From contig JBKPCR010000273.1 in NCBI GenBank assembly GCA_046727435.1, forward strand, positions 1-33,578: a DNA stretch of 33,578 nt. The letters are read 5' to 3'. The position numbers and the translations under genes are program-made. The notes beneath the pieces were generated by a model that did not search any database, was not told the origin of the DNA, and saw only the letters and a list, made by a program, of their open reading frames with translations. This stretch comes from CAVPRW01 sp046727435 [NCBI: bacterium] (GTDB lineage: Bacteria; Tectomicrobia; Entotheonellia; J063). Each line of letters starts with the position of its first letter. Positions within the stretch are counted from its first letter, which is position 1. Positions 26,167 to 33,578 of this stretch are shown one piece after another.

Positions 26167-26997
26167 ATGGCGCACGCAACGGAGAGGGAAGACACACGCC
26201 ATCACCTTGGCTCGACGCTGATGCGCGAAAGTCTACTCGACAAAGAGGTCCAGCAGTCGACGGAGATGCCGGTCTTTCGCATGCTACCCGACACCCACGT
26301 CATTAAGATTGGTGGCGGCTCGATTCTTGACGCGGGGCGAGCCGCAACATTTCCGGTGGTTGATGCCCTGGTGACCTGTCTCGCCACGCAAAAATTGATC
26401 ATCGGCACGGGGGGTGGGGCTAGGAGTCGGCACGTCTTTGCCATCGGCATCGACCTCGGCATGCCGGCCGGGGTGTTGGCTGAGCTCGCCCAGGCCGATG
26501 CCCTGGGGAACGCCCATATATTGGGCACGCTCTTGGCCCCCTATGGGGTTGTTGCCATTCCCCCGCATATCTTTGGACACCTTTTACCCCTGTTCATCCG
26601 CACCGCCCCCGGTGTCATCTTCACGGGCGTCCCGCCATACTCGCTGTGGGAGCACCCCCCGGCGCTAGGTCGCATTCCGCCGCATGGCAGCGATGCGGGT
26701 TCGTTTCTGCTGGCGGAATGTTTTGGCAGTCAGGACCTGACATTGGTGAAGGACGTGGACGGGCTTTACGACAAAGATCCGAAACGCCATCCCACGGCCA
26801 ATTTTATCCGTGAGATCTCCGTCACCGAGCTCAAGAAGCGTCAGCTCGAGACCCTCTCGTTCGAGCGCATCATGCTCGATTTGCTCGGCCATGCCCGGCT
26901 CCTAAAGCAGTTCCAGATCATCAACGGACGGAAGCCCGGGCAAATCATCCGTGCCCTAGGGGGGGAGCATGTCGGGACCATTGTCTATGCTGATTGA
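26167..26997 (+). CDS. Molybdenum storage protein subunit (MosA/MosB family)
   Basis: Full-length 276-residue member of the Mosto family, related to UMP kinase. Nucleotide-binding motifs are VIKIGGGSILDAGRA (about 45-59) and LIIGTGGGARSRHVFAIGID. The second half has GVPPYSLWEHPPALGRIPPH, DAGSFLLAECFGSQDLTLVK, DVDGLYDKDPKRHPTANFIR and the end block IINGRKPGQIIRALGGEHVG. In Azotobacter two different subunits form an alpha3-beta3 cage that stores about a hundred molybdenum atoms using ATP; here the partner is broken, so a homohexamer would be needed. Longer starts exist at 26131, but ATG 26167 has GGAG 6 nt upstream and gives the family length. Cytoplasmic. Confidence 0.88.
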   Translation: MAHATEREDTRHHLGSTLMRESLLDKEVQQSTEMPVFRMLPDTHVIKIGGGSILDAGRAATFPVVDALVTCLATQKLIIGTGGGARSRHVFAIGIDLGMPAGVLAELAQADALGNAHILGTLLAPYGVVAIPPHIFGHLLPLFIRTAPGVIFTGVPPYSLWEHPPALGRIPPHGSDAGSFLLAECFGSQDLTLVKDVDGLYDKDPKRHPTANFIREISVTELKKRQLETLSFERIMLDLLGHARLLKQFQIINGRKPGQIIRALGGEHVGTIVYAD

Positions 26998-27113
26998 ACC
27001 TGTGGTCCAAAGATAGTGCTGCGCCCCCCACCCAGCACCCCAATCGAGGGGGAACGGTTCGGATGGGTAAAATGGCGGCGCACGATAGTTCGAGCAAATC
27101 AGGAAGGAGGAGG

Positions 27114-29432
27114 ATGAGCATCGACAAGACGCATGCTCTGCGTACGTGCCGCAGTCCACAGCAAGACGGATACCGCAACGAAAATTGGGTACGTCGGGGG
27201 CGCCGGCGGGGTGCCGGCGGCGCCGTGCTCCTGTTGCTGCTGCTCGCCAGTCTCGCAACGTCTGCCCCAGCCCAGCAAGGGCCAGCCCTGGTCCAGCCTG
27301 TTGAACTTTGCCCGAATAATGGTGTCCTCAGCGTAAGCTTCAAGGTGGAGATGCAGGCAGCGCCAGTGTACGATCCCACAACCAATACCTTCACCGCGCT
27401 GCCGGTACGGACTTACAATCTCGATCAGACTGGCACCTGGCGGTTTTGCGGTGGACAGGGATCGATCCAGAACCCGATGATTCCCGGCCCAACGATTCGA
27501 TTGCGCAAGGGGACGCCAGGGAACACCGACGGGACCCAATTCAGTCTGACGCTCAGCAACCGGCTCCCCGTGGACGGGTCAAACCATACATGCAACCCTG
27601 TCATCAACTACAGTGCCACCGTCCCGGCGCGGCCCGATGGCACATGCAATCTTGCAGATTTTCCGTCCCTGACGACGGAGTGGCCCGCCTGCTTCCATGG
27701 CGACAACGTCACCAACATGCACTTCCACGGGTTTCACATCTCTCCGCAACCACCGCAGGATTTTGTGCTCCTCAGCCTCTATCCTGAAGGCACACCGCAC
27801 GTCACTCCCACGCCCACAGAACAGGTCGGCACGTATCAGTTTACGCTCGATCCGATCCCTTATACCCAGGCCGAGGGGACCCACTGGTACCACCCCCACA
27901 AGCATGGCTCCACGGCACTTCAGGTGACGAACGGCATGGCCGGCGCGGTCCTCATCGCCGGGCCTTTCGACGACTGGCTCAACGGGCAGTACGCGTCAGT
28001 CGGTGGCGTCACGGAGCAAGTGCTCATCGTCCAGCAACTGGCTCAGGGGAGTAATTTCTTCGCGCAGGGCCCGCTACCAAGCCTCAGCAAGGACTGCTCG
28101 ACCGGGGCCTGCCTCTGTACGGCCAGTTCGAATTCCCGCACTGCACCGCCTACGATCAACGGTCAGCTCAACCCTGTGATCACCATGCGGCCAGGGGAGA
28201 TCCAGCGGTGGCGCCTCATCAACGCCGCGGTGCAAGCCGGCGGGGCATTGGCAATCGGCTTTCCAATCGAATTTCAGATCAGGCAAATCGCGCAAGATGG
28301 CGTCCAATTCGCGCCGCAAAACTATCAACAACAGCCGCTGCTCAACCTCGCCTGGTTTGTGCCCAATCAACCGCCACAGACGCTGACGACGGCGAACCTG
28401 GCGCCGGGTAATCGTGCCGATTATTTGGTGCAGGCGCCGATGGTGACGCAACTAACCTGTTATGCGCCGGTCCAGTCGGTGTTCGGCAACGTTGCCCCCG
28501 CCGTTCGCCAGCGCATCGACGCCCAGCAGCAGGCAATCAGGGCAGCCCTTCGAGCACAAACGACCTTCACTCCGCTGCTCACCGTGTGTGTCGATCCCAG
28601 CCTGGGACCAAAACCAATGGCATTGCCGAACACCGCCCAGTGGCCTCCTCTCCCGAACTTCTTGAATGATATCCCCGCGCAGCCGCCCCAGCCACCGGTG
28701 GCGTTCAGCATGACGCAGAAACCAGGGCCACCGGACCAGCCAGGGATCGGTAACGCCATGAACCAGTTCTTTATCGACAACGTGCAGTATTGTCCTGACT
28801 GCGCCAATAAGACGATGACCCTGAACGTCCCGCAGGAGTGGATCATCACCAATGACTCAACGCCCCAACACCCGTTTCATATCCACACCAATCCCCATCA
28901 GCTGGTCGAACAGGGGAGCATCATCAATGGTCAATATGTACCGTTCCTGACGTACAATCCTCCAGTATGGGGGGATACGATCGCATTGCCAGCCGTGACC
29001 CAGGCATCCAGTCAAGGGCAACAGGGCTGTTGGAACATCCCGGCAGGCCCGATCGCGAATAACGACGCAGCCCAGCAGCAGTGCTCTGCGGCCTGCGCTG
29101 CACAAAAAATGACGTGGTCTGGCAATTGGGTGACGACCGTCCCAGGCCAGATGTCGGTCTGCCAATGTTGTCCACCGAACGGCAGCCTCGGCTACGTCAG
29201 AATCCGTCTGCTGCCCATTGACTTCACCGGCGAATTCGTGCTCCACTGCCACATCCTTGGCCACGAAGACCGCGGCATGATGCAGAACGTCCAGGTCGTC
29301 TGTCGCCAAGGCCCCTACTATGGGAAGCCACGTGCTGGAGGGACTGAATGTGTGCCAGACAATTTCATTCCCGCGGCTAAGCCATGCCCTCGGGAATACA
29401 AGACGGGACCGATGTGCGCCTCCGGTTCATAG
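27114..29432 (+). CDS. Exported multicopper oxidase with a Cys-rich insertion
   Basis: 772-residue laccase-like oxidase. A positively charged, strongly hydrophobic signal (RRGRRRGAGGAVLLLLLLAS, cut after APA) sends it out of the cytoplasm. All four copper motifs are present: NMHFHGFHIS (about residue 201), HWYHPHKHGS (about 256), QHPFHIHTNPHQL (about 584) and LHCHILGHEDRGMM (about 709), giving type 1 and the trinuclear centre. The T1 axial ligand is Met or similar in GMM. It is longer than ordinary laccases (about 500): there is a long middle domain and a cysteine-rich segment between motifs 3 and 4 (QQCSAACAAQ ... SVCQCC). The in-frame TTG at 26994 is rejected; ATG 27114 has AAGGAGG upstream. 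Substrate (phenols, Mn, Cu or Fe) unknown. Confidence 0.9.
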   Translation: MSIDKTHALRTCRSPQQDGYRNENWVRRGRRRGAGGAVLLLLLLASLATSAPAQQGPALVQPVELCPNNGVLSVSFKVEMQAAPVYDPTTNTFTALPVRTYNLDQTGTWRFCGGQGSIQNPMIPGPTIRLRKGTPGNTDGTQFSLTLSNRLPVDGSNHTCNPVINYSATVPARPDGTCNLADFPSLTTEWPACFHGDNVTNMHFHGFHISPQPPQDFVLLSLYPEGTPHVTPTPTEQVGTYQFTLDPIPYTQAEGTHWYHPHKHGSTALQVTNGMAGAVLIAGPFDDWLNGQYASVGGVTEQVLIVQQLAQGSNFFAQGPLPSLSKDCSTGACLCTASSNSRTAPPTINGQLNPVITMRPGEIQRWRLINAAVQAGGALAIGFPIEFQIRQIAQDGVQFAPQNYQQQPLLNLAWFVPNQPPQTLTTANLAPGNRADYLVQAPMVTQLTCYAPVQSVFGNVAPAVRQRIDAQQQAIRAALRAQTTFTPLLTVCVDPSLGPKPMALPNTAQWPPLPNFLNDIPAQPPQPPVAFSMTQKPGPPDQPGIGNAMNQFFIDNVQYCPDCANKTMTLNVPQEWIITNDSTPQHPFHIHTNPHQLVEQGSIINGQYVPFLTYNPPVWGDTIALPAVTQASSQGQQGCWNIPAGPIANNDAAQQQCSAACAAQKMTWSGNWVTTVPGQMSVCQCCPPNGSLGYVRIRLLPIDFTGEFVLHCHILGHEDRGMMQNVQVVCRQGPYYGKPRAGGTECVPDNFIPAAKPCPREYKTGPMCASGS

Positions 29433-30518: not shown

Positions 30519-31742
30519 TTACAGATCAAGAGGACTTTGTAACGGCTTGAGGTCGGATGTGATGGTATGGGTGTAGATCATCGTGGTTCGCACATCGCTG
30601 TGGCCAAGCATCTGCTGAATCTAGCGGATGTCGTAGTTCGCCTGCAACAGAGGCGTGGCGAACGTGTGCCGAAGGGTGTGCGGAGAAACCCGTTTTGGAA
30701 TGCCCGCCTTGCGAGCCGCCGCCTTGATAGCCCGCTGGATATCGGTTTCATGCACATGATACCGCCGCACTTCGCGCGTGGCCGCCACGAGCGTCAGACG
30801 TTGTGCGGGAAAGCACCACTGCCAGACGAGTTCCCGCGCCGCCGACTTGGCCTTCTTTTCGAACGACGCAGGAAGAAAAACGCCGTCATAGCCCTTCTTC
30901 AGGTCCTCTTGATGGATCTCCCTGACCTTTTCGAACGGCCGCATGATTGACCCATGGATCTTCTTCGGCAAGGGCACGGTCCGCGATTTGCCGCCCTTGC
31001 CGAACTGGACAGACAGCATCCCGGTGTCAACATTGAAGTTGTGGATCCGTAGATTGGCCGTCTCGGAAAGCCTCAAGCCACACCCGTACATGAGCATCGC
31101 CAGTAATGCATAGGGCTCGTGCAACCCAGCCAAAAGCAAGTCCACCTCCTGCCGCGAAAGCACCGTTGGGATATACTTGCTTCGCTTCGCCCGTGGCGTA
31201 TCCGACAGATCACCGAGCTCCTTTGTGAACACATGTCTGAACAGAAACAGCAGGGCATTGAACGCTTGGTTTTGCGCCGCAGCCGACACCTGTCTCCTGA
31301 CGGCCAGATCGGCCAAAAACCGCTTGGCCTCCGCACCCGTCAACTCCGCCGGATGGGTCTTGACCATGAAACCCCGAAACTTCCGCATCCATTCGGCATA
31401 CGCTTGGAGCGTCTTGGGCGAATAATGGCGAAGCAGGATCTCGTCTTTCAACTTCGCTTCCACCTCTCGCCAGGCCGCGTTCGTCTGTTCGCTCGCGCCA
31501 TGGGCCTGAACGAGGACATGCGCTTGTTCCTCCATCATTCGAGATGGCCCGATGACGCTCTCCTGCGTCCTTGCCGCGAGACTATCTTCTCCGTCTTCCG
31601 GCGCGGTCGGCGCGACCGCATCGTCGTCTCGCAACGATCGCAACTGCGGCGACAAGAACACGGAGTCATATTCGACCGCGCATTGTGCCTGGGCCCGCTG
31701 TGCAGCCGTTTGGCCTTTCGAAGCTAGTTTTCCTAGAAACAA
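30519..31742 (-). pseudogene. intI: Integron integrase (IntI-type tyrosine recombinase) with in-frame amber codon
   Basis: Tyrosine recombinase that would insert and excise gene cassettes at attI/attC. The N-terminal SAM-like domain is HYSPKTLQAYAEWMRKFRGF. Catalytic box I is MYGCGLRLSETANLRI (Arg), followed by GKGGKSRTVPLP (Lys) and PHTLRHTFATPLLQANYDIR (His, Arg). The integron-specific insert, GVFLPASFEKKAKSAARELV then WQWCFPAQ, is present, which separates IntI from XerC/D. Directly after YDIR a TAG stop (30621-30623) interrupts; in the same frame the gene continues IQQMLGHSDVRTTMIYTHTI with the catalytic Tyr (30573-30575) and ends SPLDL at TAA 30519. Without readthrough there is no nucleophile. 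The first 69 residues, from a TTG, are doubtful; an ATG at residue 69 is a better start. Confidence 0.85.
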
Positions 31743-32262: not shown

Positions 32263-32449
32263 GCCTAACTGCAACTCTACGGTACAGGGAGGGGTCAACG
32301 GCACCGGCCAAGCAACATTCCGACAGGCGGTCAACCTTCAAAAGCACTGTATTTTCAAATCTTTGCCCAAATGTTGGAAACGGTCGCAAACAATGCGCGA
32401 ACCGTGAGTCGGGGGGTTATACAGAAAACGGTTGAATAACTTGTTAGGC
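32263..32449. repeat. Integron core-site pair: possible degenerate attC, right end at GTTAGGC
   Basis: GCCTAAC (32263-32269) and its exact complement GTTAGGC (32443-32449) are perfect RYYYAAC/GTTRRRY core sites. The 187-bp span is longer than usual attC sites (about 57-141), and the inner arms do not pair well by eye. GTTGAAT (32431-32437) is a further core match next to it. The right core may instead be the R box of attI, in which case the left one is chance. Confidence 0.4.
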
Positions 32450-33456
32450 TCCCAGGAACTTCTAATATGTTTAAGCGTAACACTTTTGTCACGTGTGCCC
32501 GCCCGAGAAGGAACTACCCGATGAGTCAGCCCGAGCAATGGCAACTGAGTAGCAATGCTGCCGAGATGTATGAACGATGCGTCGTCCCGTATCTCTTAGG
32601 TCCCTGGGCGCCAGGTCTCGTCGAACTCGCCGCCCTACAGCCAGGAGAGTGCGTGCTCGACGTCGCCTGTGGAACTGGAGTGGTAGCCCGTCTCGCCGCC
32701 CAAAAAGTCGGGACCACGGGACAGGTGACGGGCTTGGATCTGAACCCAGGAATGCTCGCCGTTGCCCGCTCGCTGCTACCGCTACCTGGAGCGCCCATCA
32801 CCTGGGTTGAATGTAGCGCGGTGGCAATGCAGCTGGCGGATGCGACATTTGATGTCGTCCTGTGCCAGCAGGGCTTACAGTTCTTTCCTGACAGGTCTGG
32901 AGCCCTGCGCGAGATGCGCCGTGTCCTGAGACCCGGCGGACGTCTGGTCCTCAGTGTCTGGAAAAAGGCAAGCCCGTATACCACAGCAATGCGCGAAGTG
33001 GTGGAGCGGCATATAGGCCCGGAGGCTGCGGCCCGACTGAGTGCCACCACAGGGCTGGGAGACGCCGAGGCATTGCACCGACTCCTCGTCGACGCCGGGT
33101 TCTCTGACGTCCACATTCGCCCCAGCGTGATGACGATACACGTGCCACCTGTAGCAGAGTTCGTGCTGAAGCATCTGGCTGCCACGCCTGTGGCTGGCGC
33201 GGTTGCCGCACTCAGCGAGGAGGCACGGACGGCCCTGGGCCAGGATTTCCATAGGGCGTTGCAGTCGTACGTCGATGGGGAGGGGGTCGCGTTTCCCAAC
33301 GAAGCCAACCTCGCGACAGCACATACGTAATGAGAGGGGCTTTGGGGAGAAGAGCAGTGCTGAACGGCTCACCGAGAAGAGCCTAACGAAGGCCTGGAGC
33401 CGACGCCTTCCAGCGTCCGCTGCGCTCCCGCTTCCAGGCGCGGCTCAGGCCCGGCG
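32444..33456 (+). mobile_element. Integron gene cassette carrying a methyltransferase
   Basis: Bounded on the left by the core G/TTAGGC (cut after 32443) and on the right by attC with R' core G/TTCGGG (cut after 33456). It holds one gene of 810 bp, 71 bp of leader after the left core and 50 bp between stop and attC. This one-gene, attC-tailed layout, pointing away from the integrase, is the standard cassette form. Confidence 0.7.
32521..33330 (+). CDS. Class I SAM-dependent methyltransferase (UbiE/type 11-like), cassette-borne
   Basis: 269-residue methyltransferase. N-terminal MSQPEQWQLSSNAAEMYERC is typical of small-molecule methyltransferases. SAM motif I is CVLDVACGTGVVARLAA, the ribose-binding acid is in VTGLDLNPGMLAVAR, the adenine region is VECSAVAMQLADATFDVVLC, and the post-motif is REMRRVLRPGGRLVLSVWK. 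The C-terminal third (AEALHRLLVDAGFSDVHIRP) also fits the type 11 group. Substrate unknown; cassette-borne relatives are sometimes guessed to modify antibiotics or quinones, without proof. The frame is open to 32467, but ATG 32521 has AGAAGGAA about 8 nt upstream. It is the only gene in the cassette and lies between two integron core sites, so it was probably acquired by cassette insertion. Confidence 0.88.
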   Translation: MSQPEQWQLSSNAAEMYERCVVPYLLGPWAPGLVELAALQPGECVLDVACGTGVVARLAAQKVGTTGQVTGLDLNPGMLAVARSLLPLPGAPITWVECSAVAMQLADATFDVVLCQQGLQFFPDRSGALREMRRVLRPGGRLVLSVWKKASPYTTAMREVVERHIGPEAAARLSATTGLGDAEALHRLLVDAGFSDVHIRPSVMTIHVPPVAEFVLKHLAATPVAGAVAALSEEARTALGQDFHRALQSYVDGEGVAFPNEANLATAHT

Positions 33457-33462
33457 TTCGGG
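33381..33462 (+). other. attC recombination site of the methyltransferase cassette
   Basis: R'' core GCCTAAC (33381-33387). L'' arm GGCCTG-g-AGCCG-a-CGCCT (33391-33408) pairs perfectly with AGGCG-CGGCT-CAGGCC (33436-33451), leaving two unpaired bases, G33397 and A33403. This is the arrangement of extrahelical bases used for strand choice by IntI. A 27-nt terminal loop lies between the arms. R' reads GTTCGGG, which departs from GTTRRRY at one or two positions, either natural or changed by what follows. About 82 bp in all, within the usual size. Confidence 0.82.
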
Positions 33463-33578
33463 TGTGCCGAGACAAACCGGCACGATGTGAAGGAGTGTAA
33501 GTCTCCGACAGTGAAGGTTTAGCCAACCACACTGGCCCCGAGTCATGCGCGCGCCTCGGTAACGGGGTCCGTGAAGCG
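33462..33578 (+). mobile_element. Possible 5' end of a group II intron inserted after attC
   Basis: Starts GTGTG, the group II 5' consensus (GUGYG). It then folds into successive stems: GTGCC...GGCAC (33464-33483), GGAG...CTCC, and CAGTG...CACTG, with GAGTCATGCGCG, GGTAACGGGG and GTGAAGCG further on, resembling domain I of bacterial group II introns. It begins right behind the attC hairpin, as class C introns do after stem-loops. The window ends before the reverse-transcriptase gene and domains V-VI, so this is not proven. Confidence 0.5.

What the first reader, a model, noticed from the sequence alone, without database searches (positions are those of the whole stretch)
33381..33578. Group II intron-like sequence begins exactly where an attC site ends
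Directly seen: attC hairpin (33381-33451), then a damaged R' core, then GTGTG at 33462 and three consecutive short stems within about 100 nt. Established: some group IIC introns target attC stem-loops, usually reported on the opposite strand to the cassette gene. Here the orientation is the same as the cassette gene and the 5' end is GTGTG, so it may be a different intron class or targeting mode.
Basis: partly seen in the sequence, partly recalled or inferred. Interest (0 to 1): 0.68.

Follow-up and report, generated by a model that had tools for sequence, protein, structure and literature searches.

The report
Sense-strand group II intron in attC
[quoted passage not shown] a few similar cases are in print, so this is a further example of a rare association rather than a new kind of element.

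Summary
Window 33462-33578 is the 5' 117 nt of a group II intron (best Rfam family RF02005, 65.2 bits, gathering 49), on the strand of the cassette gene. Its 5' exon is an attC-like site (33381-33461) after a methyltransferase gene, near an integron integrase gene. The intron starts after six of the seven bases of R' (GTTCGG^GTGTG), which explains the "damaged" core. GTGTG is the ordinary GUGYG start. It is probably not a IIC-attC intron: one Kl.pn.I3-like control matches RF02001 and not RF02005, and strand and position differ. Across 20 distinct exon ends, RF02005 introns pair with their own exons better than in any of 2000 reassignments, so base-paired homing is the likely mechanism. The decisive bases start about 67 nt past the window's end. 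None of 83 other RF02005 exons was attC-like. Sense-strand introns at attC are already in print (PMC7923331). Maturase, domain V and 3' exon could not be tested. Side finding: 62 of 84 RF02005 introns (36 of 57 distinct exons) lie next to a CTG-N10-CAG LexA-type box.

The parts
30621..31742 (-). intI, integron integrase gene (match to integrases starts at residue 96; the ORF as listed has about 95 residues before that, status unclear)
   Evidence: TIGR02249 293.7 bits, cut-off 265; PF00589 and PF13495
32263..32269 (+). inverse core GCCTAAC of a possible upstream recombination site; the 187-nt stretch to 32449 does not fold as a clean attC
   Evidence: sequence, folds
32443..32449 (+). core GTTAGGC, left border of the methyltransferase cassette (attI or attC core, not decided)
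   Evidence: sequence
32467..33330 (+). cassette gene: class I SAM-dependent methyltransferase, 287 aa
   Evidence: PF08241 E 4.8e-26
33381..33461 (+). attC of the methyltransferase cassette = 5' exon of the intron (R'' 33381-33387, R' GTTCGG 33456-33461)
33455..33461 (+). predicted IBS1 (CGTTCGG); should pair with an EBS1 at about intron nt 184-190, beyond the window end
   Evidence: inference from the EBS1 position in relatives
33462..33578 (+). 5' 117 nt of a group II intron (start GTGTGCC, domain I), cut by the window end; RF02005 match at 33498-33578
   Evidence: RF02005 65.2 bits, E 2.9e-16; alignment with relatives

Best explanation
[quoted passage not shown] I infer that it is group IIB-like, because RF02005 relatives pair about six bases with the 5' exon where IIC introns pair 3-4, and that its maturase lacks an endonuclease, as in three relatives. 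Shown: intron 5' end, attC-like site, integrase gene, sense orientation, insertion after GTTCGG (six of seven R' bases). Inferred from relatives: the RNA recognised the site by base pairing of EBS1 with IBS1 (CGTTCGG or part of it) and reverse-spliced there. Because R' is cut after base six, the recombination point G^TT stays intact, so the integrase might still use this attC and the intron would travel as the 5' leader of the following cassette; being in sense, it could also splice out of the cassette transcript. These last steps are untested.
For: RF02005 at E 2.9e-16, with the junction at the family's 5' boundary. Integron integrase and cassette layout. The IIC-attC-type control matches RF02001 (134 bits) and has no RF02005 match at E up to 10. 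In relatives EBS1 lies near intron nt 184-190: 20 distinct IBS1 heptamers average 5.55 of 6 pairs, reassigned ones 4.55 with a maximum of 5.15 in 2000. The IIC figure of 3-4 bp is from a passage of PMC7923331. Three relatives' maturases match RVT_1 and no endonuclease family.
Against: Only 117 nt are visible; the intron may be a dead 5' fragment. EBS1, EBS2, maturase, domains V/VI and 3' exon are outside the window, so pairing with attC is untested. The attC call is moderate by sequence statistics alone (9 of 100 shuffles), and R' has C where the consensus has R. The window intron is a long separate branch (at most 70% identical to 29 other distinct 5' regions; node support 0.674), so properties carried over from relatives may not hold. 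The host is unknown.
Confidence: 0.72

Rival explanations
1. Chance homing: the intron recognised a short sequence ending in GTTCGG that happens to lie in an attC; attC structure or integron biology played no part. (This is one reading of how the best explanation came about, not its opposite.)
For: RF02005 relatives choose sites by EBS1-IBS1 pairing. 21 distinct non-LexA 5' exons show no excess of structure (mean z 0.02; 1 below -2). 0 of 83 other exons are attC-like.
Against: An insertion inside one seven-base R' is an unlikely random landing (a few in 10,000 positions of this window, my estimate, made after the fact). Other IIB introns are reported directly after attC (PMC7923331, passages, discussion part 1).
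Confidence: 0.45
2. attC-adapted lineage: this RF02005 branch has exon-binding sequences fitted to the conserved part of attC R', so cassette arrays give it many equivalent targets, as LexA-type boxes do for some of its relatives.
For: 62 of 84 RF02005 introns (36 of 57 distinct exons) sit next to CTG-N10-CAG, so this family can specialise on a recurrent dyad site; the window intron is a separate branch at an attC dyad.
Against: One insertion only; no second attC insertion found (0 of 83); R' here is off consensus at one base.
Confidence: 0.3
3. It is a IIC intron, only inserted on the unusual strand (as reported for one IIC intron in Enterobacter cloacae).
For: IIC introns follow hairpins, and one top-strand IIC case is cited in PMC7923331 (its reference 31, paper not held).
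Against: Domain I fits RF02005 best; the one IIC-attC-type control fits RF02001 and gives no RF02005 match at E up to 10; the usual IIC-attC target is bottom strand TTGT^T (PMC7923331 passage).
Confidence: 0.05
4. Assembly or fragment artefact: only an intron 5' remnant, or a chimeric contig end in a repeated element.
For: The window stops inside the element; repeated intron copies can break assemblies (general knowledge).
Against: The junction falls at the first intron base and inside R', as a real insertion would; a chimera would not be expected to respect both borders.
Confidence: 0.12

Closest known systems
UHB.I2, group IIB1 intron (CL1-type maturase), Tanatar-5 soda lake metagenome (PMC7923331: abstract, passages, discussion part 1 of 2 and reference list part 1 of 2 read)
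   Same: IIB-type, directly after an attC, same orientation as the cassettes
   Different: Its ends are UUGCG..GU and its maturase is CL1 class; ours starts GTGTG and fits RF02005
H.ha.F1 / H.ha.F2, class E group IIB fragments in a CALIN of Halorhodospira halochloris (same paper)
   Same: IIB-type fragments after attC or attC-like structures
   Different: Only 3' ends known there, only the 5' end here, so they cannot be compared; no integrase gene there, one here
Group IIC intron in an attC top strand, Enterobacter cloacae (Rodriguez-Martinez 2012; known only as cited in PMC7923331, paper not held)
   Same: Top strand of attC, same orientation as cassettes
   Different: Group IIC
Group IIC-attC introns (S.ma.I2, Kl.pn.I3)
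   Same: Insert at attC
   Different: Bottom strand, antisense to cassette, target TTGT^T (PMC7923331 passage); domain I RF02001 in the one control tested
RF02005 introns of plasmid, phage and E. coli records (L001-L003, L007-L021) and of IMG/VR contigs
   Same: Same Rfam family in all 18 of the named-record loci; IMG/VR introns were placed by a nucleotide profile only
   Different: Targets are LexA-type boxes, GGGGTC(A/G)GAACAAG or other sites; none attC-like in 83 examined

Membership tests
Group II intron, Rfam RF02005 (D1D4-6) | Covariance-model match above gathering score | tested here: met
   65.2 bits against 49, model positions 1-81 of 225, cut by the window end (only the best family of the clan is shown there)
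Group II intron, Rfam RF02005 (D1D4-6) | 5' end GUGYG | tested here: met
   GTGTG at 33462; boundary agrees with relatives
Group II intron, Rfam RF02005 (D1D4-6) | Maturase gene, domains V/VI, 3' RAY end | not testable with these tools
   Window ends at intron nt 117; no source genome held; exact-pattern scans of viral contigs and genome contigs found nothing
Group II intron, Rfam RF02005 (D1D4-6) | EBS1 pairs with IBS1 | not testable with these tools
   EBS1 lies near nt 184-190 in relatives, outside the window
Group IIC-attC introns | IIC-type RNA | tested here: not met
   RF02005 here; the IIC-attC-type control in L098 matches RF02001, 134 bits, and has no RF02005 match at E up to 10; one control only, and only domain I could be compared
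Group IIC-attC introns | Inserted in attC bottom strand, antisense to the cassette | tested here: not met
   Same strand as the methyltransferase gene, attC top strand
Group IIC-attC introns | Target TTGT^T | tested here: not met
   5' exon ends GCGTTCGG^
Integron attC site | R'' RYYYAAC, R' GTTRRRY, hairpin with bases unpaired on one side, at the 3' end of a cassette ORF | tested here: inconclusive
   R'' fits, hairpin and two unpaired bases fit, ORF and integrase fit; R' is GTTCGG, one base off, last base replaced by the intron; strict rule met in 9 of 100 shuffles

The most novel reading that the evidence does not exclude
The RF02005 intron family repeatedly re-evolves its exon-binding sequences to fit recurrent dyad-symmetric protein-binding sites: LexA operators in the lineage found in Klebsiella, E. 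coli and Cupriavidus plasmids, and the attC R' core in the lineage of this window, where sense insertion after base six of R' leaves the recombination point intact and lets the intron ride as the leader of the next cassette.
Probability: 0.25. Interest if true: 0.68.

Novelty: new member of a known kind. Interest (0 to 1): 0.42.

Why it matters
If the intron is whole, it is a group II intron outside the IIC class in an attC, with an integrase gene nearby, in the orientation that would allow splicing from the cassette transcript. It would add to the few cases showing that attC invasion is not limited to the bottom-strand IIC-attC lineage, and it offers a simple test (about 70 more bases) of whether base pairing to R', rather than the hairpin, chooses the site.

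Tried and rejected
IIC-attC identity: rejected by Rfam family, strand and target position. 'GTGTG means another class': rejected. A LexA-type box at the window's junction: no CTG-N10-CAG there. Hairpin as the family's general target: not supported, 21 non-LexA exons average z 0.02. Rhizobial-type exons ending GAACAAG as half of an inverted GAAC-N7-GTTC site: L002 could be read so, but the 3' exons of L017 and L018 lack the second half. Extension of the window: no genome held; exact patterns found nothing in viral contigs or genome contigs. My second genome-contig scan and a viral scan used one pattern mis-written by a base that could not match even the window, so their zeros mean nothing; the right pattern was then run only on viral contigs (zero hits). 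Integrase search in viral contigs found no relative; in plasmids the best rows shown were about 40-44% identical, which did not name a host. The first wording of the IIC control ('no RF02005 match') was not borne out, because that call shows only the best family of a clan; I tested it directly. An earlier count said 4 of 5 LexA-site introns lie beside umuD or lexA-like genes; on checking the tables it is 3 of 5 (L007, L009, L021).

Full report
Observation. The window ends with R'' GCCTAAC (33381-33387), a long imperfect hairpin, GTTCGG (33456-33461) and GTGTGCC from 33462. cmscan of the whole window gives one match at E up to 1 (best family of a clan only): RF02005, group-II-D1D4-6, + strand, 33498-33578, 65.2 bits (gathering 49), E 2.9e-16, cut at the window end.

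Surroundings. The ORF 30621-31742 (-) is an integron integrase (TIGR02249, 293.7 bits, cut-off 265), matching from residue 96. The ORF 32467-33330 (+) is a class I methyltransferase. It lies between a GTTAGGC core (32443-32449) and the attC, as a cassette gene should. The upstream GCCTAAC/GTTAGGC pair (32263-32449) does not fold as a clean attC, so whether it is attI, an attC or neither is open.

The attC. By a strict rule it is the only site in the window on both strands, and 9 of 100 dinucleotide shuffles have at least one such site. With a looser rule there are 4 sites on the + strand against a mean of 2.1 in 20 shuffles. The hairpin alone is z = -2.0. Two single bases are unpaired on the R''/L'' side within the stem, which from memory is the attC arrangement. 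I take it as an attC on layout and position together.

The junction. R' should read GTTRRRY. Here it reads GTTCGG and then the intron: six of seven bases, one of them (C) off consensus. The intron thus sits between bases six and seven of R', five bases after the recombination point G^TT (position of that point recalled). This explains the 'damaged' core.

Class. GUGYG is the normal 5' consensus (PMC7923331, passage). L007 and L021 have identical maturases, yet by the profile L007 starts GTGTG and L021 GTGCG. As a control I used p1220-IMP (NZ_KX711880, L098). PMC8934634 (passage) says its intron reverse transcriptase seems almost identical to Kl.pn.I3, and PMC5725488 (passages) says Kl.pn.I3 lies in the attC of blaIMP-4. 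Over the whole record this gives RF02001 at 134 bits and no RF02005 match at E up to 10; in reverse, the records of L001, L002 and L003 give no RF02001 match over the cut-off. In L098 an intron 3' end lies on the strand opposite to blaIMP-4, as the literature says for IIC-attC; the intron there is in pieces. So the window intron differs from IIC-attC in domain I family, strand and position. Three relatives' maturases match RVT_1 and no endonuclease family. 'IIB-like' is my inference from six-base IBS1-EBS1 pairing; PMC7923331 gives 6 bp for IIA/IIB and 3-4 bp for IIC. I did not assign a maturase class: no labelled reference was at hand. In sequence searches of solved structures the relatives' maturases score 146-156 bits with IIC reverse transcriptases and other group II maturases and about 124 with LtrA, which does not settle the class and, if anything, does not separate them from IIC proteins.

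Relatives. I fetched 18 loci first; all 18 pass the RF02005 gathering score. I then took 76 IMG/VR loci found with an alignment of five of their maturases (80 best of 82 kept, 76 distinct). A nucleotide profile from 17 sequences (16 loci and the window) placed 87 intron starts: 18 of 18 first loci and 66 of 76 IMG/VR loci; 10 IMG/VR loci gave none. Three starts lie directly after another intron and were dropped, leaving 84 introns with exons. In two of these, L010 and L015, the start is not GTGYG. The window intron is at most 70% identical to 29 other distinct 5' regions and forms a long separate branch with support 0.674. The highest-scoring BLAST match in plasmids at first was L001 (78.7% over 88 nt).

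How they choose sites. In relatives a stretch near intron nt 184-190 pairs with the last bases of the 5' exon. For 20 distinct IBS1 heptamers the mean is 5.55 of 6 pairs, 11 of 20 complete; 2000 reassignments give a mean of 4.55 (maximum 5.15) and at most 10 complete. So this family homes by EBS1-IBS1 pairing. Hairpins are not a general feature: 21 distinct non-LexA exons average z = 0.02, one below -2; 49 distinct LexA-type exons average -1.15; the window exon is -2.2. Of 84 exons, 83 were long enough to test and none has an R''/R' pair ending within 10 nt of the junction. The sample is dominated by one group (57 of the 66 IMG/VR introns are LexA-type), so this zero says little about integron-rich lineages.

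Mechanism. Most likely the intron RNA paired with the sense-strand R' region and reverse-spliced after GTTCGG. The pairing partner lies outside the window, so this is a prediction: EBS1 close to CCGAAC near position 33645-33655, if the contig goes on. Consequences (inference): G^TT is kept, so the integrase may still use the site, and the intron would move as the leader of the next cassette; in sense it could splice from the cassette transcript, which an antisense IIC-attC intron could not.

What is known. PMC7923331 (abstract, passages, discussion part 1 of 2, references part 1 of 2) reports UHB.I2, a IIB1 intron in the same orientation directly after an attC, and class E IIB fragments H.ha.F1 and H.ha.F2 after an attC-like structure and a putative attC. 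It cites a IIC intron in an attC top strand in Enterobacter cloacae (paper not held). So sense-strand and non-IIC introns at attC are in print. My searches (open-licence library; one search listed 40 of 46 papers; passages of PMC7923331, PMC4424553, PMC8876359 and PMC5725488 read) showed no named case with this target position, but they did not search for RF02005 by name. I file it as a new member of a rare known kind.

Side finding. 62 of the 84 introns, and 36 of 57 distinct 25-nt exons, have CTG-N10-CAG ending one base before the profile-placed insertion: 5 of the first 18 loci and 57 of 66 IMG/VR introns. For 57 of the 62 the start could also be read two bases earlier (GTGTG), which would put the cut inside the box; the 5 that end CAGC^GTGCG are unambiguous. 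Of the 58 whose 3' end was found, 46 have a 3' exon starting AT. CTG-N10-CAG is the gammaproteobacterial LexA box (recalled). In 3 of 5 plasmid or E. coli loci the upstream neighbour is umuD or a LexA-family gene with umuC (L007, L009, L021); L001 and L008 show no such neighbour. EBS1 reads ACTGT followed by A or T in the LexA-type introns shown, matching the box's right half. Searches for group II intron with LexA (25 of 28 papers listed), umuD or SOS box, and intron with LexA box, showed no title or abstract start that describes this (passages of one paper read); subscription papers and intron databases were not searched.

Limits. 

Noticed in passing
L001, L007-L009, L021, L022, L024-L068 (L069 gave no intron start) and others: 62 of 84 RF02005 introns (36 of 57 distinct exons) sit next to CTG-N10-CAG, a LexA/SOS-type box, and EBS1 is complementary to its right half. 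The named hosts are Klebsiella, E. coli and Cupriavidus plasmids; the IMG/VR hosts are not named.
   Followed up: partly
L033 4547 and 6456, L044 3012: RF02005 introns lying directly head to tail: the sequence before one copy is the 3' end of another intron (3 cases).
   Followed up: no
L002, L011, L012, L017-L020: 7 of the first 18 RF02005 loci share the 5' exon end GGGGTC(A/G)GAACAAG with different sequence upstream; six are rhizobial-type plasmids, one is a faecal 'Bacteriophage sp.' scaffold (L017).
   Followed up: no
window 30621-31742 (-): Integron integrase ORF with about 95 residues before the part that matches known integrases; start codon unclear.
   Followed up: no
window 26994-29432 (+): 812-aa multicopper oxidase-like protein with a match near its C-terminus to the MVL mannan-binding domain (PF12151, E 4.3e-9).
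   Followed up: no
L098 21674-22978 and 25024-25093: In p1220-IMP group II intron pieces are separated: a 5' part on the minus strand and a 3' end on the plus strand, with insertion-sequence transposase genes beside and between them.
   Followed up: partly
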